Of a stretch of DNA of 64,000 bases, positions 19,644 to 62,775 are shown piece by piece. The first letter of the stretch is position 1; every line of letters begins with the position of its first letter. Origin of the DNA: Campylobacter sp. RM16187 (lineage in GTDB: Bacteria; Campylobacterota; Campylobacteria; Campylobacterales; Campylobacteraceae); assembly GCF_025319965.1 (NCBI RefSeq), contig NZ_CP012549.1:1885754-1949753 (forward strand), given 5' to 3'. The translations under genes were made by a program, and so were the position numbers. The notes beneath the pieces were generated by a model. It saw nothing but the letters and a program-made list of their open reading frames with translations, made no database searches and had not been told where the DNA came from.

Positions 19644-19683
19644 GTTTTAATTACCTCCAAATTGTTTTTTATTTTTATCTATT

Positions 19684-20287
19684 CAGTAAAAGCCTAAAAG
19701 GCAAATTCTAACCAAAGTGGCACCAGCTATCAGCCGGACGCAAAAGTGTTTCAAAGCCCAAAAGGCAAATTCTAACTATCGAGCAGTAAGAATGTTTGGC
19801 TGGGTTGCGTGGGTTTCAAAGCCTAAAAGGCAAATTCTAACTATGACACCGCACCTATTGTGTGATTGTATTTTTAGTTTCAAAGCCTAAAAGGCAAATT
19901 CTAACACTTGAATTAGATGAACTAGAGGAAAAACTAGGATAGTTTCAAAGCCTAAAAGGCAAATTCTAACAAACCAGCTATAGCAGTAGCTAGATATAAA
20001 TAGTTTCAAAGCCTAAAAGGCAAATTCTAACTAGTTTAGAATGGTTCGCTAAAGATAAAAGAAAGAAGTTTCAAAGCCTAAAAGGCAAATTCTAACATGC
20101 TGACCCTCAAAAATCTACAGAAGTTTTTAGGTTTCAAAGCCTAAAAGGCAAATTCTAACCCATAAGGTAAAAAAGAAACATCTTTAAATGTTGTAGTTTC
20201 AAAGCCTAAAAGGCAAATTCTAACTATATAAGTTATCATTGTTATAGCCTGGCAACATGTTTCAAAGCCTAAAAGGCAAATTCTAAC
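19684..20287 (-). CRISPR. CRISPR array, 10 repeats (29 bp), 9 spacers
   Basis: Repeats start at 19684 (degenerate), 19748, 19813, 19877, 19942, 20003, 20068, 20131, 20196 and 20259. On the plus strand each begins GTTTCAAAGCC and ends GGCAAATTCTAAC. Spacers are 32-36 bp. Read on the minus strand the repeat starts GTTAGAA, has a GCCT-TTT-AGGC stem-loop and ends TTTGAAAC, as usual for type I repeats. The first repeat on the left has lost its outer bases (four mismatches at 1, 2, 3 and 5) and the next has one change, so the old end is at the left. The leader is on the right beside cas1, and transcription is leftward like the cas genes. Confidence 0.97.
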
Positions 20288-21718: not shown

Positions 21719-22216
21719 TCACATACAATAATTTCTATATGCGCAATTATCGCATATCTTTTTATACTCAAATTTTGGAGCAGTTGGCATATTTACAAGT
21801 TTTTCTATATCTATTAAAATCTCTTTCATCATATTTAAATTTTCTTCGCTTGCATCCACTAAAAACACGGTTTTACCACTTACTAGTTTGCCTTTTACCT
21901 CTTTTAGTTTTAATCCAATTTTTAAAACATAAAGATAAAACAAAAGCTGCATCTTGCCCGCTTCCGGATTTTTTAAACTCTTTTTGTATTCGGTTACCAA
22001 ATAGTGTCCGCGCTCTTTTGAAAGTTTATCAAATTTTAGATTTGCAAAGGCAAAATCTTGTAAATTCTGCTCTTTTATCTCTGCCATCACTCTGCCTAAA
22101 GCCATATTTTCATCTTCTTGATCTGGATATATATGGTGTGCGTAAAGCCAAGCTTCACGCTTGCAGGTAATATAATAATTGACCAGAGTACCGGCTATTT
22201 GATCCTTGCTAAACAT
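21719..22216 (-). CDS. cas4: CRISPR-associated exonuclease Cas4
   Basis: RecB-like nuclease with an iron-sulfur cluster that trims and selects prespacers by PAM before integration. Cluster cysteines are Cys18 (CKREAW), Cys155, Cys158 and Cys164 (CDNCAYRNYC). The nuclease region holds GHYLVTEYKKS and the QLLFYLYVL helix. At 165 aa it is a typical type I-B Cas4. Its ATG overlaps the cas3 stop (TAATG), implying coupled translation. Confidence 0.95.
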   Translation of the reverse strand: MFSKDQIAGTLVNYYITCKREAWLYAHHIYPDQEDENMALGRVMAEIKEQNLQDFAFANLKFDKLSKERGHYLVTEYKKSLKNPEAGKMQLLFYLYVLKIGLKLKEVKGKLVSGKTVFLVDASEENLNMMKEILIDIEKLVNMPTAPKFEYKKICDNCAYRNYCM

Positions 22217-24471
22217 TACATAAAAGCCTCTTCGATAATAGTTAATTCAGGCAAAAATCCATCTTTTTTGTTATAAAAATCACTTGGAGGTAAAATATAT
22301 CGTCCAAACATCTCTTTTATATTGCATTTTATTCGCAAAATTAAGTTTTCACTAACCGATATAGTATATAATCCCAGATCTTTTTCCAGATCTTTAATAC
22401 GTGCAATAGCTTCAAATTTATCATCGTATGCTTGCAAGATAGTCTCTCTATTTTCTAAAAATTTATTAAACTGCCCCTCTTCTTGCTCTATAAAAAGCGA
22501 CACCTTCCAAGGCTGATTTGGCATAAAATTACAGTTAAATTTTGTAAATAATGTTTGAAAATCCAAATTTTTAGCATAATCTAGCAAATTTATACTAGTA
22601 GTTTCATATTTCGTATTATTAAAATATCCTTCTAAAATATCGTAAATTTGGCTCTCTTTTATATTGTTAGATAAAATTTCTTTCATTTTTTTCTCTTGCA
22701 AATCCGTATTGTGATACGGAAGTGAAATATTATCTAAATAATCAAAAACAATAACGTCCGAGATTTTATTAACCCCCTCTCGATTTACTCTGCCTGCAGT
22801 CTGAATAATAGCACCAAAAGGGGCAAATTCACGAAATCCAACGTCAAAGCTAAGATCAACTCCAGCCTCTATAAGTTGTGTTGAAATCAAAATAATCTTA
22901 TCTTCATCATTGCACAACTTCAATCTAATCTCATTAATCAACTCAATTCTATGAAGCGGAATTTGGTGAGTAGTCAAAAGATAAATATTTGCCTTATTTT
23001 CAATTTCTTTTTTTATCATTTCGTATAGTTTTTTAGCCTTAAAAATAGTATTAACAACACAAAGAACATTTCTATTTTTATTCTTTAAAATTTCATCTTT
23101 TAAATTTTCAAAATCACTCAAATTTGACCTATAAATAAGTTTATATCTATCTTGCTTTTGACTATAAAATTCTGGCACAGAAAGCTCGGTAAAATTTTCA
23201 AGTTCGGCTTGAATATGCGGCATAGTAGCCGACATAATAATAAAGTGAATGTTGTATCTCTTTGCAAACTCATTAAAGGCGATAGAAATCGGCTTTAATA
23301 ATACTCTGGGTATATTTTGTATCTCGTCTATTATTATAACGCTATCCCTAAGTGTTTCAAGCTTTAAATTATCCCTATTGTGATTCGAAAAAAATATATA
23401 AAATAATTGATTAAAAGTAGTCACGATAAAATTTTCTTGCCAGATATCTGCTAAAAATATTTTTTGCGAAAACTGTTCTTTTTCATCTTCCTCGCTATAA
23501 TTTATGGATTTTTGTGTATATTTTGTCAGATGATGGTATTTCAAAACACTATCTTTACCTATCACATTTTCATATACATAATGTGTCTGATCTATTATAG
23601 AAGTAAATGGAATGGCTGTTATTATGCGCCTTTTATTACCTTTTATTTTAGAAATTTCTAAGGCCAAACTAAGAGCTAAAAATGTCTTGCCGATACCGGT
23701 TGGGGCTTTGATTAAAAATTTGTCTTTTTCAGTATTGTTTTTAAAATTTTTAAAGATTACTTCTCTGGCTTTTGTTTTGTAATTATTCGTATCTTTTTTC
23801 TGCTTTTCATTTATTATTTGACTTATTTTATACAAATAAAAATCAATTTTTTCTTTACTTAAAATATCCACATTACTATATGGCTTAGAAAATATAGCTT
23901 CAAATTTATCTGCTAAAATTAATCGTGAATATCGCTTTTTAAAAATAAAAAAGTTGTCTAAATTTTGAAATTGCTTAAAATTTCTTTCTAACGCTAAAAA
24001 ATATTTCATAAAACTACGAATATTAATATTTGCATCTATTTTAGCAATTTTACAAATATCTTGAGATGTCTGAACTTTTTGATTGATGCTATCTTTAAAA
24101 TTAATTACAGATAGATAGCCTTTTATAAATTCTAGAATATCAGGTAGGTCGGAGTGATGCTTTAAAATGCTAAAAAAATTAGCTAAGAAATTTATATTCT
24201 TGTTTTCTTTAACAAAAAAATATATAAAAGCGCTTTCTAGCGTATGTGTTGTCTTTAGCTTCTCTCTTGCCTTTTTAAATTCTTCTTTAGATTCAAAATC
24301 TTTTGTTTCAAGATTAATGTATGTTTGAAATTTATCAGCAAGTTTAGCTATGTCGTGATAAGAACTTGTCTCGATATGATCTAAATCATCGCCAAAACTA
24401 TTATTTATATTGCCAATATGCGAATTATATGGCTTTTTTGGATGAGAATTAAATTGATCGGAAATCTCCAT
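22216..24471 (-). CDS. cas3: CRISPR-associated helicase-nuclease Cas3
   Basis: Degrades target DNA after Cascade recognition. The N-terminal HD nuclease domain carries His18 (NSHIG), His39-Asp40 (YHDIAKLADKFQTY), and later THTLESA and KHHSDL. The superfamily 2 helicase part follows, with Walker A KAPTGIGKT, box II IIIDEIQN, MSATMP, and motif VI QTAGRVNREG. I choose the ATG that shares a base with the cas5 stop (TAATG); an ATG five codons upstream lies within cas5. The resulting 751 residues suit a fused HD-helicase Cas3. Confidence 0.95.
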   Translation of the reverse strand: MEISDQFNSHPKKPYNSHIGNINNSFGDDLDHIETSSYHDIAKLADKFQTYINLETKDFESKEEFKKAREKLKTTHTLESAFIYFFVKENKNINFLANFFSILKHHSDLPDILEFIKGYLSVINFKDSINQKVQTSQDICKIAKIDANINIRSFMKYFLALERNFKQFQNLDNFFIFKKRYSRLILADKFEAIFSKPYSNVDILSKEKIDFYLYKISQIINEKQKKDTNNYKTKAREVIFKNFKNNTEKDKFLIKAPTGIGKTFLALSLALEISKIKGNKRRIITAIPFTSIIDQTHYVYENVIGKDSVLKYHHLTKYTQKSINYSEEDEKEQFSQKIFLADIWQENFIVTTFNQLFYIFFSNHNRDNLKLETLRDSVIIIDEIQNIPRVLLKPISIAFNEFAKRYNIHFIIMSATMPHIQAELENFTELSVPEFYSQKQDRYKLIYRSNLSDFENLKDEILKNKNRNVLCVVNTIFKAKKLYEMIKKEIENKANIYLLTTHQIPLHRIELINEIRLKLCNDEDKIILISTQLIEAGVDLSFDVGFREFAPFGAIIQTAGRVNREGVNKISDVIVFDYLDNISLPYHNTDLQEKKMKEILSNNIKESQIYDILEGYFNNTKYETTSINLLDYAKNLDFQTLFTKFNCNFMPNQPWKVSLFIEQEEGQFNKFLENRETILQAYDDKFEAIARIKDLEKDLGLYTISVSENLILRIKCNIKEMFGRYILPPSDFYNKKDGFLPELTIIEEAFM

Positions 24472-25211
24472 TATACAAATCTGCAATGATAAATTTTATC
24501 GCCACAAGTTATTTTAAAAGCTTCAATATTTTTAGCTCTTATTTTATTGTTAGATAAAATCAAATTTTTACTTGCGATGGGCGATCTGTCGGCATCTAAA
24601 GCAGTAGCAAAACTTAAAGGCGAGTATAAAACACCATCCTCAAAGTCTATATTTTTTATATCGCTTTCCAATAAAAATGAGTCTATGCTGACCTCATCAA
24701 AATATAAATTGTCAAATTTATTTATTTCTAAAAATTCAAAATTGCCGGCAAATTCACTATTGCCAAGATAAAATGAAAATTTACAAATTCTATTTTTAAG
24801 ATTATGAATCGCCTCGGCTTCAAGCTCAAATTCATCAATAAAGATGATATACCCGGGGTTAATCAACAGCTCCCTATTGATCGGTTTTTGAGGAGCTTTT
24901 ATATCCCTAAGTCCATTTGCTATTTTTTCTATATTAAATTTAAGCAAATTATTAATATGAGTTTTTGTATTTTTGGTGTAATCGTTTATATAATTTTGTG
25001 AAAAAGTCTTTTTTGTGATTGAATTGCCTAAAACTACACTGTATTTAAAACCTGAAAACTTACTATTGTTTAAATAATCCTCTACTCCAAGCAAAGCCGC
25101 AAGCATTCCTGAAACAGCTGTCTTTGGCGGAATAGGCAAAGTAATATTTTGACTAATACCCAAGGGGTCTTTGAAGCAAGCAAATTTTCCCCAAACTTTA
25201 AAAGCGAACAT
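24471..25211 (-). CDS. cas5: Cascade subunit Cas5 (type I-B)
   Basis: Binds the 5' handle of the crRNA in Cascade. The N-terminal strand and glycine-rich turn FKVWGKFACFKDPLGISQNITLPIPPKTAVSGMLAALLG (in part) is the Cas5 RAMP signature, close to the Csh-subtype. Length is 246 aa. Both ends are joined to neighbours by TAATG overlaps, with cas7 upstream and cas3 downstream. Confidence 0.94.
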   Translation of the reverse strand: MFAFKVWGKFACFKDPLGISQNITLPIPPKTAVSGMLAALLGVEDYLNNSKFSGFKYSVVLGNSITKKTFSQNYINDYTKNTKTHINNLLKFNIEKIANGLRDIKAPQKPINRELLINPGYIIFIDEFELEAEAIHNLKNRICKFSFYLGNSEFAGNFEFLEINKFDNLYFDEVSIDSFLLESDIKNIDFEDGVLYSPLSFATALDADRSPIASKNLILSNNKIRAKNIEAFKITCGDKIYHCRFV

Positions 25212-26086
25212 TATAATTCTTTAACTTCTAAATTGATGCTTATATTTTTAAAATTATCAATATATTGTTTTGCTGTTTCATCATAAAAAATCACAACTTT
25301 TTCTATCTTTTCACTCATGCTTCTTAGTGAGTTTATTAAATTTGTAAAATTTAATTCACACTCATTAAAACTACGAAGCTGTTGCGAATTTTCATTATCA
25401 ATTCTTACAAGCTCATCAAGTAATCCTATCATATAAGTATCTTTATAAATTACTCTAATAAGCATTCTAGGTTTTTGACCGACCTTACTTCTGGTATTTA
25501 GCAACTTTGTTCCTTGCCACATAGAATCAAGCATATCAGCAACATCATCTTCGCTAGCATTTGATTTTTTAGCATTTATCGAGTTTATAGTGCCATACAT
25601 AGCAAACAATCCGTACGGAATATAATTATCTGTTCTAAAAGTCTTATTTTGGCTATTGTCCTTTCCAAAAGCGCCTGTTCCTTGGGATAAAATAGTCTCG
25701 GTTTCATTTAAAGACTTTGTCCACGAAAACTGCACTGCTCCGATAATTTGGATATTGCTTTTGGGCGCAACTCCACCAAAAAGTCTATTATCTATACAGC
25801 TTAGAAAAACTTCTTTATCATCTTTTAGCTTTAGTGCATTTTTAAGTTCTGCAAATCTAGTCTCCGCAGATTGTACCTGCTCTGCATTATTTACAAAAAT
25901 AGTTCTTTCTTTTCTATTTTGGAGATCATCTCTAATTGTTCTTTTGACCCTGACATCACTTACTACAGCCTTTCTATCGCTTTCATCATATCTTGGCGCA
26001 TTATCATTTAGCATATCACCATTGGGATTTGTCATTTTCGCATCCCACAAAAATAAAATTTCACTATGTTTTGCTAACTCACTCAT
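25211..26086 (-). CDS. cas7: Cascade backbone subunit Cas7 (Csh2, type I-B)
   Basis: Forms the helical backbone of Cascade along the crRNA. Csh2-type features include the N-terminal LFLWDAKMTNPNGD and NAPRYDE, the SDVRVKRTIRDDL helix, and a later LFAMYGTINS. Length (291 aa) is normal. The ribosome site GGAG is 6 bases before the ATG and straddles the end of the preceding small gene. It is coupled to cas5. Confidence 0.95.
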   Translation of the reverse strand: MSELAKHSEILFLWDAKMTNPNGDMLNDNAPRYDESDRKAVVSDVRVKRTIRDDLQNRKERTIFVNNAEQVQSAETRFAELKNALKLKDDKEVFLSCIDNRLFGGVAPKSNIQIIGAVQFSWTKSLNETETILSQGTGAFGKDNSQNKTFRTDNYIPYGLFAMYGTINSINAKKSNASEDDVADMLDSMWQGTKLLNTRSKVGQKPRMLIRVIYKDTYMIGLLDELVRIDNENSQQLRSFNECELNFTNLINSLRSMSEKIEKVVIFYDETAKQYIDNFKNISINLEVKEL

Positions 26087-26087
26087 A

Positions 26088-26501
26088 CTATTCTCCTTTT
26101 TTTATTTCTTTAGCTTCTCTTTTAAATTTTGCGTAATCATTAAAGCCTCTAATAAAGGCATATGAAATCTCTTGTTGAGATATTTTAGTATTTTTATCAT
26201 AATTGAAATGTGTAGTAACAAGCTGGGACAAATTACTATCTTTAAAGTTACCAAGTCTTAACTTTCTTTCAAATTCATTTGCTTTATTAAAAATTTTCTT
26301 TAAATTAACCTCTATTATTTTTTGATTGGAAAGCCATTTTTCAAAAGTCTTATTTCCACTAGAAACTTCCGAATACAAAGAGTTATTGATTATACTTTTA
26401 GAGTAAGCACCTATTAAATAAGCTCCTTTAATTAATCCGTTATCAAAATAATCAGGATGTAGTTCCAATAATTTTTCAAAATATTCAGAAAAAAGTTCCA
26501 T
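26088..26501 (-). CDS. Candidate stand-alone small Cascade subunit (Cas11-like), split from Cas8b
   Basis: A 137-residue helical protein (MELFSEYFEKLLELHPDYFD...) between cas8b and cas7. Its middle (LIKGAYLIGAYSKSIIN...), FERKLRLGNF and the end (ISQQEISYAFIRGFNDYAKFKREAKEI) resemble the C-terminal helical end of Csh1/Cas8b, from which type I-B systems usually make the small subunit by internal initiation. Here it has its own start with AAAGGA 5 bases upstream, overlapping the cas8b 3' end by 17 bases. I infer a gene-split Cas11; homology is judged by eye only. Confidence 0.65.
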   Translation of the reverse strand: MELFSEYFEKLLELHPDYFDNGLIKGAYLIGAYSKSIINNSLYSEVSSGNKTFEKWLSNQKIIEVNLKKIFNKANEFERKLRLGNFKDSNLSQLVTTHFNYDKNTKISQQEISYAFIRGFNDYAKFKREAKEIKKGE

Positions 26502-27906
26502 TTTTATCCTTTATCGCATCTATTTTTTTTAAAAACTCTAAAATTTTATCCTCATTTTCAACATATTTTCTTGGATATACTATCCAGTCTTTTACATCTT
26601 TTTTTTCAGAATTCATTCTTTTTTTATTCGCTGCATCAAATTCTCTAAAGTGCTCAAATCTCTTTAGAAGCTCTAAATAATCTATCTTTAAATAGCCCAA
26701 AAGCAGCTTTGCCAAATAAATTCTTTCCTGAAAAATTTTATTTTCTAATCCCTTTAAACCATTACTGTTTTTAAACTGCTCAATATTTCTAAAACAATCT
26801 CTCAAATACGTGTATTTTATATTTTGATCTTCATTTTTCACTACGTATAAACTATCACTTATATAATTATCTTTCATTAAATTTGCCACTTGTCTTATTC
26901 TGCTAGGTATTATGTCTTCTAGTGTAGAAAATATCTGAACAGATAAATTTGTAATATTAACTTTAGTAAACAGTATATCAAGTGTTAGGTTATCTATATA
27001 CATAACTTTTTCTACTTGATCTTCAAGTGACCAGATAAAACTCTCTTCTCTAGAAGCAAAGCTTTCTAAGTTATTTTTAGATTCTTTCAAGGAATATAAC
27101 ATATCATTGAAAACTTCTTTATCAAAATTTAACATTGATGGAATTATTATATACTCCAGCCCTTTATAGTAAAATTTGAGATTATTTACAGCAAACATCC
27201 AGCCTTTTTTTATGGCCTTTGCAGTATCTTTTGACATAGGCATTTTATCTATCATTTGCACTTTAAAAATATCATCGTAATTATCCATAGTAAAAAATTT
27301 TATATTTGGGCTATACCCGCATAGTTCTTTTTTTCCACTGATAATGTCTATCTGCTCTTTAAAAAAAGGTTTATCATTTTTATCTTTTATATGAGGCTCC
27401 ACAAACTCATCTATATAGTTTTTTAAAACTTCGGGCATAAGCTCATAAAAAGTCTTGCCATTTATTAATAAAACAAGAAAATAATCATTTTTTTGATATG
27501 ATTTTAAGTCAAGCTCATCAACTTTGTAATTATTTATATATTCAAATACAATTTTTGCTAAAGCAATATTGTTATCATTCGCATAAATCATAATAGAATT
27601 TTTTATAGTATGAGAGATGGCTTGAAATTTTTTATATAGGTCGCTTTCATCCTGATACTCATAATTTGGATATAGATAATATGAATTACTAGTGCCTCCG
27701 ATTTTTTTAGTAAAAAATGTTTTTAGATTATCTAAAGATGACGTAGAAATAATCGGTTTATCTATTAATTTACCATCTTGTATTTTAAAATCAACAACCA
27801 AAGTTGTATATTCACTCTCCTTAAAATTATGATTTTTGATCATATCTTTGATTTTGTCATCATCTATTAAAATACCGATTTTATAAAGTTTATGCGCCAG
27901 TCCCAT
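26485..27906 (-). CDS. cas8b: Cascade large subunit Cas8b (Csh1-like)
   Basis: The large subunit of type I-B Cascade, expected to recognise the PAM and recruit Cas3. It is placed before cas7 and cas5 and begins MGLAHKLYKIG. It has the loosely conserved TM1802/Csh1 look, with RIRQVANLM and YLAKLLLGYLKIDYLELL. At 473 aa it is shorter than a Csh1 with a fused small-subunit end; together with the next gene the total is 610, the expected size. The 161-bp gap upstream contains promoter-like sequence and a CRISPR-repeat-like element. Confidence 0.85.
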   Translation of the reverse strand: MGLAHKLYKIGILIDDDKIKDMIKNHNFKESEYTTLVVDFKIQDGKLIDKPIISTSSLDNLKTFFTKKIGGTSNSYYLYPNYEYQDESDLYKKFQAISHTIKNSIMIYANDNNIALAKIVFEYINNYKVDELDLKSYQKNDYFLVLLINGKTFYELMPEVLKNYIDEFVEPHIKDKNDKPFFKEQIDIISGKKELCGYSPNIKFFTMDNYDDIFKVQMIDKMPMSKDTAKAIKKGWMFAVNNLKFYYKGLEYIIIPSMLNFDKEVFNDMLYSLKESKNNLESFASREESFIWSLEDQVEKVMYIDNLTLDILFTKVNITNLSVQIFSTLEDIIPSRIRQVANLMKDNYISDSLYVVKNEDQNIKYTYLRDCFRNIEQFKNSNGLKGLENKIFQERIYLAKLLLGYLKIDYLELLKRFEHFREFDAANKKRMNSEKKDVKDWIVYPRKYVENEDKILEFLKKIDAIKDKNGTFF

Positions 27907-27962
27907 AAATTCATTATCCTGAAATATTTTAGAATAATTTTACATCTTTATATATTAAAAAT

Positions 27963-27970
27963 ATCTTATA
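27963..27970 (-). promoter_or_regulatory. Putative internal promoter (-10) for cas8b and downstream cas genes
   Basis: On the minus strand TATAAGAT lies 57 bases before the cas8b start in AT-rich DNA and fits the extended Campylobacter -10 pattern. If active, cas8b to cas1 would be transcribed independently of cas6. The ends of this element touch the sequence that matches the spacer-like part of the adjacent crRNA-like element. Confidence 0.4.
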
Positions 27971-27986
27971 TTGCTTTGTAATTTAA
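27969..27986 (+). promoter_or_regulatory. Candidate target site (protospacer) of the crRNA-like element
   Basis: Positions here match 16 of the first 18 bases of the spacer-like sequence starting at 28046; the mismatches are at spacer positions 6 and 8. The three bases 5' of it on the same strand are TTA, a possible PAM, and differ from the AAT before the spacer itself. The site overlaps the putative -10 of cas8b (minus strand) and the TTGCTT -35-like box of the crRNA-like element (plus strand), where bound Cascade would block transcription. Confidence 0.6.
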
Positions 27987-27992
27987 GAAAAT

Positions 27993-27998
27993 TATGAT
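27993..27998 (+). promoter_or_regulatory. -10 element for the crRNA-like RNA
   Basis: TATGAT with a TTGCTT box 16 bases upstream (27971-27976) and a further TATTAT overlapping its end; transcription would begin near 28008-28011, just before the degenerate repeat. Confidence 0.4.
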
Positions 27999-28010
27999 AT
28001 TATTTCTACC

Positions 28011-28080
28011 GTAAAAGAAAATTTTACTCTTTTAGGGTTTGAAATTATTGATGTGTAATTTAATTAATTAATTTTCTTTT
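28011..28080 (+). ncRNA. CreA/CreR-like mini-CRISPR: degenerate repeat plus spacer-like sequence
   Basis: Bases 28017-28045 resemble the array repeat read in its transcribed sense: the last 17 bases (CTTTTAGGGTTTGAAAT) match 15 of 17. The repeat stem GCCT-TTT-AGGC is replaced by CTCT-TTT-AGGG: the outer G-C pair has become C-G (28027/28037) and one C-G has become U-G, so pairing is kept. The 8-base 3' end TTTGAAAT corresponds to the crRNA handle TTTGAAAC. From 28046 a spacer-like sequence (TATTGATGTGTAATTTAA) follows and ends in TTTTCTTTT. It lies between cas6 and cas8b, opposite to the cas genes, and its last bases run into the 3' end of cas6. The role as a Cascade guide is inferred. Confidence 0.6.
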
Positions 28081-28760
28081 ACAATCTCCAAAAATCCGGT
28101 GCCAACGCTCATGCACCCGCTTCCAACACCTGTATCAAGTATCAAATTTATCATCTCGCTACTAGCCTTTATTTCCCATATAGCCTGCCATGCACGCATT
28201 GGCGCATTATTATTACCATAATAAAATAAAACAGGTTTATAAAGGTTTTGCCATTTCAAAATAAGCTCAAATTCGCCGTCATATTCATATCCTTTTATAG
28301 TCTCAAATCTCTGCAATGCATTAGTTTTCATCATTTCAAGATGTCTTGAATCCTGTGGCTCAAGATAAATTTTATAGCCCAAAAGTCCTTGTATAGCGCA
28401 AGCCGCATAACCTTTTAACAAAACGCTCTTACCTTCTAGCTCATTAACTCTATGAGATGATATTGATATGTTAGTGTCTAGCAGATAAATTTCGCCTAGC
28501 TTAAGACCGTTTTTTAAAATTTCCATGGCAATAAGCTCTTCAAATTTTGGCTCATACGAGGTAAATCTTATCCGTAAATTTAAACCTCTCAAACTAAAAT
28601 CAAAATTTGTTTTTTTAAATATTTTGCCTGTCTTTTTATGTCTATATCCGATATGCTCGCTTTCTGGTAAGTTATGATATATGAAGCCTTGTATAAGCTC
28701 TGGCAAAATTTTTGCAACCTTAATATTTGTAGTAGGAAGTTTAGAATTTATAATAAGCAT
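28068..28760 (-). CDS. cas6: CRISPR RNA endonuclease Cas6
   Basis: Cuts the pre-crRNA inside each repeat to give crRNAs with an 8-base handle. It is a RAMP protein with the C-terminal glycine-rich loop (LDTGVGSGCMSVGTGFLEIV), the hallmark of Cas6. His residues such as those in YHNLPESEHIGYRH near positions 28-41 are candidates for catalysis. Length is 230 aa. The ribosome site AAAGGA is 6 bases before ATG. It is the first cas gene, separated from cas8b by 161 bp that carry a repeat-like element. Confidence 0.93.
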   Translation of the reverse strand: MLIINSKLPTTNIKVAKILPELIQGFIYHNLPESEHIGYRHKKTGKIFKKTNFDFSLRGLNLRIRFTSYEPKFEELIAMEILKNGLKLGEIYLLDTNISISSHRVNELEGKSVLLKGYAACAIQGLLGYKIYLEPQDSRHLEMMKTNALQRFETIKGYEYDGEFELILKWQNLYKPVLFYYGNNNAPMRAWQAIWEIKASSEMINLILDTGVGSGCMSVGTGFLEIVKEN

Positions 28761-62413: not shown

Positions 62414-62627
62414 TTTGTTTGATTGTTGTTTGATTAAAAGCTTAAAAAAATATAAGATAAGTGCTAAAAGCCTCTAAATTACATATTTAAATATAAAATT
62501 TTGTTTGATTGTTGTTTGATTAAAAGCTTAAAAAAATATAAGATAAGTGCTAAAAGCCTCTAAATTACATATTTAAATATAAAATTTTGTTTGATTGTTG
62601 TTTGATTAAAAGCTTAAAAAAATATAA
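62414..62627. repeat. 86-bp tandem direct repeat, about 2.5 copies
   Basis: Copies start at 62414, 62500 and 62586 with period 86 and essentially no mismatch over 214 bp; the third copy breaks off after 42 bases. Each unit begins TTTGTTTGATTG and has an 11-bp internal near-duplication (TTGTTTGATTG / TTGTTTGATTA) followed by the palindrome TTAAAAGCTTAA. No coding potential is seen. Confidence 0.95.
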
Positions 62628-62775
62628 ATAATATTAAAAAATAAATTTTAATTAAAATTATATATTTAAAATTTTAATTTTTTAATACTAATATATATTT
62701 CAAAAATTACTTAAAAATTTTAAAAATAGATTCCAATTCAGAAAATCCTTAAATTTTAGGCATCAAACAATAATT
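62628..62775. other. AT-rich intergenic end of the repeat region
   Basis: With the tandem repeat, a 369-bp gene-free stretch separates the AlbA-type gene from the exported-protein gene, the two being convergent. Beyond the repeat it is nearly pure A/T with no recognisable signal. Confidence 0.5.

What the first reader, a model, noticed from the sequence alone, without database searches (positions are those of the whole stretch)
27963..28080. A CreA/CreR-like mini-CRISPR between cas6 and cas8b that may let Cascade repress its own genes
Seen: a degenerate repeat (28017-28045) whose last 17 bases match the array repeat at 15 positions. Its stem is kept although three stem bases changed (outer G-C swapped to C-G, one C-G to U-G). 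After it comes a spacer-like sequence of which 16 of the first 18 bases match 27969-27986, in the same gap. The two mismatches are at positions 6 and 8; position 6 is normally unpaired in type I targets. The matched site has a different 5' flank (TTA) from the element itself (AAT), so the target could carry a PAM while the element does not. The site overlaps the putative cas8b -10 and the element's own -35. Known: in haloarchaeal type I-B loci, crRNA-like CreA lies between cas6 and cas8b and guides Cascade to a promoter, and CreR-type RNAs repress cas promoters. Inference: this Campylobacter locus has an equivalent, so a drop in Cascade would raise its synthesis. Whether a toxin RNA (CreT) is also encoded is not clear.
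Basis: partly seen in the sequence, partly recalled or inferred. Interest (0 to 1): 0.93.

Follow-up and report, generated by a model that had tools for sequence, protein, structure and literature searches.

The report
CRISPR self-repressor RNA in Campylobacter
Between two CRISPR genes this Campylobacter carries a one-repeat mini-CRISPR whose guide matches the DNA just upstream of its own cas8b gene, an arrangement found in 23 related genomes with mostly different but still matching guides, and it likely lets the CRISPR complex turn down its own production (in some relatives probably that of a toxin-like gene too).

Summary
Degenerate repeat, 16/18 spacer match and TTA flank are all there. In 24 of 36 assessable Campylobacterota cas6 tails (14 distinct guides) the same slot holds a psi-repeat whose next 16 bases best match a site 77-121 nt upstream. 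All 24 sites carry TTA, the PAM inferred separately from protospacers of related arrays. Mismatches fall at guide positions 6 and 12 (27 of 48 cells) and almost nowhere else in positions 1-13 (1 of 264: position 8 of this window). That is the Cascade pairing pattern. The target abuts the predicted promoter of cas8. Best explanation: a CreR-class RNA guiding Cascade to repress its own operon. In the window no toxin lies between that promoter and cas8b. In 8 of the 24 loci a small hydrophobic ORF, a PemK-like or an AbiD-like gene comes first instead. New for this class, as far as I could check: no second repeat, but a covarying clamp of 7-15 bp joins the RNA's ends. Expression, processing and repression are untested; the window's copy may be weakened.

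The parts
28017..28045 (+). psi-repeat: stem CTC/GGG (28027-28029/28035-28037), loop TTTTA, 8-nt tag TTTGAAAT 28038-28045; predicted Cas6 cut before 28038
   Evidence: psi-repeats of 24 loci listed
28046..28063 (+). guide (psi-spacer); 16 of 18 bases match the target
27969..27986 (+). target site (strand identical to guide given; Cascade would pair with the minus strand)
27966..27968 (+). PAM TTA of the target
   Evidence: PAM inferred; TTA at 24 of 24 best sites
28011..28023 (+). 5' arm of the clamp, GTAAAAGAAAATT
28070..28082 (+). 3' arm of the clamp, AATTTTCTTTTAC, over the cas6 3' end (antisense)
27976..28003 (+). predicted promoter of the element: TTGTAA, 16 nt, TG-extended TATTAT; its -35 lies inside the target
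   Evidence: consensus scan only: 3 sites found in 27850-28150, 2.4 expected by chance
27937..27965 (-). predicted cas8b promoter: weak -35 GATATT 27960-27965, 17 nt, -10 TAAAAT 27937-27942; start near 27930
   Evidence: read by analogy with relatives from the sequence; the automatic scorings picked other weak hexamers here, and the scan lists no minus-strand promoter
26485..27906 (-). cas8b, first gene after the predicted repressed promoter
   Evidence: PADLOC Cas8b, E 1e-14
28068..28760 (-). cas6, upstream of that promoter; its 3' end overlaps the guide RNA
21719..26501 (-). genes behind cas8b: 137-aa small-subunit candidate, cas7, cas5, cas3, cas4
19679..20287 (-). CRISPR array, repeat GTTAGAATTTGCCTTTTAGGCTTTGAAAC, 10 repeats counting a truncated last one, crRNA strand minus

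Best explanation
The gap between cas6 and cas8b encodes a predicted one-repeat, crRNA-like RNA whose guide matches, at 16 of 18 bases, a TTA-flanked site abutting the predicted cas8b promoter, so Cascade loaded with it would block transcription of its own genes. Shown by sequence: the psi-repeat, the guide-target match, TTA, co-variation of guide and target across 24 loci, the mismatch pattern at positions 6 and 12, the clamp, and the promoter geometry in relatives. Inferred: transcription from about 28010, Cas6 cutting before 28038, loading into Cascade, binding without Cas3 cleavage because only about 16 bases pair, and repression. cas6 lies upstream of the repressed promoter, so the RNA could still be matured while the operon is off. 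When Cascade falls (few complexes, many competing crRNAs, or an anti-CRISPR) repression would ease and Cascade would be made again. Because the site also covers the element's predicted -35, the RNA would limit itself too. In relatives whose target promoter first drives a small hydrophobic ORF, a PemK-like or an AbiD-like gene, the same RNA would also hold that gene down and so punish loss of Cascade.
For: 24 of 36 assessable cas6 tails carry the element; in 11 of the 12 without it the next gene starts within 134 nt of cas6, the twelfth has a broken cas6. Of 37 solitary psi-repeat candidates picked by repeat likeness alone, the 10 in cas6 tails have a TTA site matching at 13-14 of 14 upstream; 0 of the 27 others reach 12. 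With no PAM or position weighting, the best site of each guide has TTA in 24 of 24 (two, L131 and L168, tie in score with another site). Mismatches: positions 6+12, 27 of 48; other positions 1-13, 1 of 264, Fisher p 9e-25; with 14 distinct guides 14 of 28 against 1 of 154, p 2e-12. Shuffled guides reaching 12/14 at a TTA site: 32 of 12000; dissimilar foreign guides 0 of 304. TTA from protospacers. With a free search the best promoter starts 3-6 nt after the target in 12 of 14 loci; the -35 is exactly TTGACA in 14 of 24 and the spacing 17 in 20 of 24 (offset there limited to 2-8). Slot kept with a Cst2/DevR-type effector (L133).
Against: No RNA or reporter data. The window is the only locus of 24 with a mismatch in positions 1-13 other than 6 and 12, its cas8b promoter is weak, and both free scorings and the scan failed to pick the promoter I assume, so this copy may be weakened. 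No protospacers were found for the window's own array, so its PAM rests on relatives. The psi-repeat matches the array repeat at only 12/21 outside the tag. G006 (C. concisus UNSWCS) has no element. G041 keeps the element beside a cas6 split over two frames.
Confidence: 0.87

Rival explanations
1. CreTA-type guard: the RNA is mainly an antitoxin that keeps a toxin promoter silent; autorepression of cas is secondary.
For: In 5 of 24 loci a 45-55 aa hydrophobic ORF with a Shine-Dalgarno-like site comes first after the target promoter; in 2 a PemK/MazF-like gene (one of them, L051, with a 36-aa hydrophobic ORF before it), in 1 an AbiD/PD-T4-5-like gene. The small ORFs form two families with unnamed homologues (8 and 1 proteins).
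Against: In 16 of 24 loci, the window included, the first gene is cas8 itself, in 15 of these 16-22 nt after the predicted start. Toxicity of the small ORFs is not shown.
Confidence: 0.07
2. Relic: a decayed single repeat from an old array, with a match that arose by chance or local duplication in AT-rich DNA.
For: The psi-repeat resembles the repeat of another array in a sister genome (G038). The region is AT-rich; the window pair has a position-8 mismatch.
Against: 24 of 24 own pairs, position 6/12 pattern, foreign guides 0 of 304, other solitary candidates 0 of 27.
Confidence: 0.03
3. Antisense or structural RNA acting on cas6 mRNA; the guide match is a by-product.
For: The transcript would run antisense into the last cas6 codons, and its 5' arm equals the sense end of cas6.
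Against: Antisense pairing does not predict a TTA flank, a matched upstream site, or mismatches at positions 6 and 12.
Confidence: 0.03

Closest known systems
CreR, cas-regulating RNA (type I-B, I-E, V-A; primary paper Liu et al. 2023 not held; known here from passages of PMC13131331 and of PMC12737573 section 3.2)
   Same: crRNA-like RNA with partial complementarity to its own cas promoter; no toxin in the window
   Different: one psi-repeat plus a terminal clamp; sits tail-to-tail with cas6; the same slot faces toxin-like genes in some relatives. Whether the primary paper describes these features or lists Campylobacter could not be checked.
CreTA of haloarchaea (PMC8501985: abstract, sections 3, 14, 15 read; PMC9458426: abstract and introduction read)
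   Same: seed 1-5 and 7-11 with positions 6 and 12 free, PAM next to promoter elements, degenerate repeat; H. hispanica creA also has one psi-repeat
   Different: PAM TTC there, TTA here; most creA have two psi-repeats giving both handles; no CreT in the window; pairing here reaches 13-16 bases
CreTA of type I-F in Acinetobacter (PMC10097628: passages only)
   Same: mini-CRISPR in a cas intergenic region, guide matching a PAM-flanked promoter site, up to 17 paired bases
   Different: two psi-repeats, no canonical seed rule, an RNA toxin
CrePA (CRISPR-repressed protein toxin; passages of PMC12737573)
   Same: a protein toxin-like gene behind the guided promoter in L051, L179, L049
   Different: PemK- or AbiD-like genes rather than an FtsZ-directed toxin; not in the window
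scaRNA of Francisella (introduction of PMC9458426)
   Same: degenerate repeat with a 15-bp regulatory match
   Different: Cas9, and a non-cas target

Membership tests
CreR | crRNA-like gene with degenerate repeat (hairpin + 8-nt tag) near cas genes | tested here: met
CreR | partial match of guide to the promoter of its own cas operon, with the system's PAM | tested here: met
   PAM from relatives' arrays, promoter predicted
CreR | no toxin gene under the target promoter | tested here: met
   window: predicted promoter runs straight into cas8b; toxin-like gene or small hydrophobic ORF in 8 of the 24 loci
CreR | RNA is made, cut by Cas6 and carried by Cascade | not testable with these tools
   needs small-RNA sequencing
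CreR | represses cas transcription | not testable with these tools
   needs a reporter
CreTA | CreT toxin RNA or mini-ORF under the target promoter | tested here: not met
   window: none with a Shine-Dalgarno-like site (one search lists one 15-codon ORF overlapping the cas8b start); hydrophobic ORFs in 5 of 24 loci, toxicity untested
CreTA | two flanking psi-repeats (usual form) | tested here: not met
   best second-repeat match reached by 7 to 133 of 200 shuffles in 11 loci; window 19 of 200
CrePA | protein toxin under the target promoter | tested here: not met
   not in window; PemK-like in L051 and L179, AbiD-like in L049
ordinary CRISPR array | two or more near-identical repeats with spacers of about 35 nt | tested here: not met
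   single psi-repeat

The most novel reading that the evidence does not exclude
A one-repeat, circularly permuted crRNA. The clamp pairs the RNA's 5' end with the bases just after the guide, so after Cas6 cuts, the single hairpin stays tied to the guide's 3' end: one repeat supplies both handles that normally come from two. This self-closing guide sits in a swappable slot of Campylobacterota type I-B loci, autorepressing cas in most and, in others, also holding down toxins (small membrane peptides, PemK, AbiD-like), showing how a self-regulator and an addiction guard turn into one another.
Probability: 0.3. Interest if true: 0.88.

Novelty: new variant of a known kind. Interest (0 to 1): 0.78.

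Why it matters
RNA-guided self-repression of CRISPR, described for some type I-B, I-E and V-A systems, would be common in Campylobacterota type I-B loci (two thirds of the Cas6 tails examined here), including the human-associated C. concisus group. The 24 natural guide-target pairs are a ready-made evolutionary test of the Cascade pairing rules. The slot faces cas8 directly in 16 loci and a toxin-like gene or small hydrophobic ORF first in 8, so the step between autoregulator and CRISPR addiction module becomes testable. The clamp suggests how a guide can be built from one repeat. It also predicts how these systems would answer anti-CRISPRs: by making more Cascade, or by releasing a toxin.

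Tried and rejected
Rejected: canonical array (one repeat); CreTA in the window (no room for a toxin gene); intrinsic terminator as the role of the clamp (one search finds none in 27850-28150; in relatives I only read the arms by eye); second psi-repeat. First-look failure: the 17-mer repeat search missed the element of G038, whose stem differs; scanning by tag plus repeat likeness found it. Protospacers for the window's own array: none convincing in 48 genus genomes or phages (8 Prevotella phage records over 36 nt), none for 5 of its 9 spacers in viral contigs (the other 4 not tried there). Cas8b relatives in viral contigs: none; the gap in plasmids: none. The one genome-contig scan gave 5 named loci. 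In the listings (at most 20 titles shown each) I saw no paper on CreTA or CreR in Campylobacter; two reviews that hold both words were not opened. The primary CreR paper, and a 2023 NAR survey of CRISPR-derived regulatory RNAs that I recall and looked up by a recalled DOI, could not be read, so earlier listing of Campylobacter is not excluded. An RNA covariance model was not built: MAFFT did not line up the arms.

How the 24 were chosen: 10 by repeat likeness alone (tested and, with all 37 solitary candidates); 4 by reading the cas6 tails; 10 by a scan of further Cas6 loci that scored tag plus upstream match. So the last 14 are not independent of the match; hence the unweighted re-test and guide swaps. 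Sister loci share guides, hence the count with 14 distinct guides. Three further loci end at the contig (L170, L171, L178). Six of the 27 other candidates lie in arrays on the wrong strand and match the next repeat (14/14, flank AAC). Where a toxin-like gene directly follows cas6 without the element (L052, L176, L180) I did not look for an element beyond that gene. PAM count: of 86 protospacer copies, 17 with repeat-like flanks AAC/AAT were dropped afterwards as array copies (among them all 10 from the window and G042); copies in sister prophages are not independent. Clamp: four loci have runs of only 7 bp, near the foreign mean of 5.9; shuffles reached the run in 11 and 12 of 300 for L128 and L049; own arm is the best partner in 13 of 15.

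Full report
The place. The window carries a type I-B locus on the minus strand: cas6 (28068-28760), a 161-bp gap, cas8b (26485-27906), a 137-aa small-subunit candidate, cas7, cas5, cas3, cas4, and the array at 19679-20287 whose crRNA strand is minus. G006 of the same genus appears to be C. concisus UNSWCS (the named contig has the same length and match as G006:C35), so the window lies in the genus group of C. concisus.

The observation. In the sister genome G042 the same gap holds the same element with guide and target matching 16/16. Between the two genomes the guide differs at 5, 8 and 10 and the target at 5, 6, 8 and 10; at 5 and 10 both sides made the same change.

The PAM. Protospacers of related arrays of the genus carry TTA directly 5': 48 of 69 copies once 17 with repeat-type flanks are set aside; 8 of 9 spacers for G006, whose Cas8b is 61% identical to the window's; only 2 of 5 for the second array of G038; background 0.031. 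The element's target has TTA in both sister genomes, the element itself AAT or AAC. The window's own array gave no protospacer.

The family. Of 37 solitary psi-repeat candidates picked by repeat likeness in 21 fetched stretches, the 10 that lie in cas6 tails have a TTA site matching their guide at 13-14 of 14 positions (6 and 12 left out) upstream on the same strand; none of the 27 others reaches 12. Four more elements were read in cas6 tails and ten more found in further Cas6 loci, in other genera and one other family. In all, 24 of 36 assessable cas6 tails have it. In 11 of the 12 tails without it the next gene starts within 134 nt of cas6; the remaining one has a broken cas6. The element lies tail-to-tail with cas6 in each, across several Cas8b variants and one Cst2/DevR-type effector, so it follows cas6 and the slot rather than one effector.

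Pairing rules. Over 24 pairs the mismatches at guide positions 1-16 are 0,0,0,0,0,12,0,1,0,0,0,15,0,1,3,8, then frequent. Positions 6 and 12 are those that do not pair in type I targets; in H. hubeiense CreA, changes at these two were tolerated while the ten other positions of 1-12 were needed (PMC8501985, section 15). The one mismatch in positions 1-13 outside 6 and 12 is position 8 of the window itself, so this copy may be weaker. Dissimilar guides from other loci never reach 12/14 at a TTA site (0 of 304; shuffled guides 32 of 12000).

What is repressed. The target lies next to a sigma-70-like promoter: with a free search its -35 starts 3-6 nt after the target in 12 of 14 loci, TTGACA in 14 of 24 and 17-bp spacing in 20 of 24 (offset limited to 2-8). 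In 16 of 24 loci cas8 follows directly (several judged by their N-terminal sequence only), in 15 of these 16-22 nt after the predicted start. In G038, G014 and G026 a 45-aa, and in G003 and G039 a 55-aa hydrophobic ORF with a Shine-Dalgarno-like site comes first (alignments; hydropathy; unnamed homologues). In L051 and L179 a PemK/MazF-like gene (PF02452) and in L049 an AbiD/PD-T4-5-like gene lies between. In the window and G042 the hexamers are weak (GATATT, 17 nt, TAAAAT, placed by analogy); the automatic scorings and the scan did not pick them. cas6 stays upstream of this promoter, which would keep the guide maturing while the operon is off (inference).

The clamp. In all 24 loci a run of 7-15 complementary bases joins the stretch before the psi-repeat, near the predicted start of the RNA, to bases that begin at guide position 15-25, after the matched part. 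Over 15 representative loci own runs average 10.1 bp against 5.9 for foreign arms; own is the best partner in 13 of 15; 0 of 100,000 permutations reach the sum; windows shifted 33 nt give 3-7. Runs of 7-8 bp in single loci could be chance. The window RNA folds at -14.9 kcal/mol, z -3.2. No second psi-repeat stands out. In type I-B of Haloferax the 3' handle can be removed altogether without loss of interference (PMC4326828, section 22), so a one-handle guide can work. I propose, as the bold reading, that the clamp brings the only hairpin to the guide's 3' end; a plainer role is protection of the 3' end.

Relation to the known. This is how CreR is described to work: an RNA-guided autorepressor of cas (passages of PMC12737573 section 3.2 and of PMC13131331). 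Sequence-level defining features are met; expression, processing and repression could not be tested. It is not CreTA in the window. Across the 24 loci the same slot looks CreR-like in 16 and like a guard of toxin-like genes or small hydrophobic ORFs in 8, which links the known kinds. I rate it a new variant of a known kind.

Noticed in passing
L015:9180-9314, L126:4000-4134, L129:11345-11479, L017:9540-9704, L132:11010-11174: Two families of 45-55 aa hydrophobic ORFs, without Pfam match where scanned, between the guided promoter and cas8; candidate CRISPR-repressed membrane peptides.
   Followed up: partly
L051:1359-1742; L179:2439-2885; L049:538-1269; L052:6437-6748; L176 and L180 after cas6: The cas6-cas8 gap of relatives outside the genus holds toxin-antitoxin-type genes (PemK, AbiD-like, nucleotidyltransferase); L052, L176 and L180 have no element before them (L176 and L180 judged from the first residues only).
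   Followed up: partly
L042:3236-3261 (G042:C1:96235-96260): Solitary near-exact array repeat away from any array; no TTA target found nearby. Perhaps another regulatory or anti-CRISPR RNA.
   Followed up: partly
L041:2672-2881 (G042:C1:874171-874380): Array-type repeats in both orientations within 210 bp, one pair forming an inverted repeat.
   Followed up: no
L043 (spacer L043-3267); L131 near 12525: A spacer of G038's second array matches, at 38-39 of 45, a place that in L131 lies inside cas3 (flank not TTA): a spacer resembling another strain's CRISPR genes.
   Followed up: partly
window 62414-62631: Tandem repeat, 86-bp unit, 2.5 copies, 99% matches.
   Followed up: no
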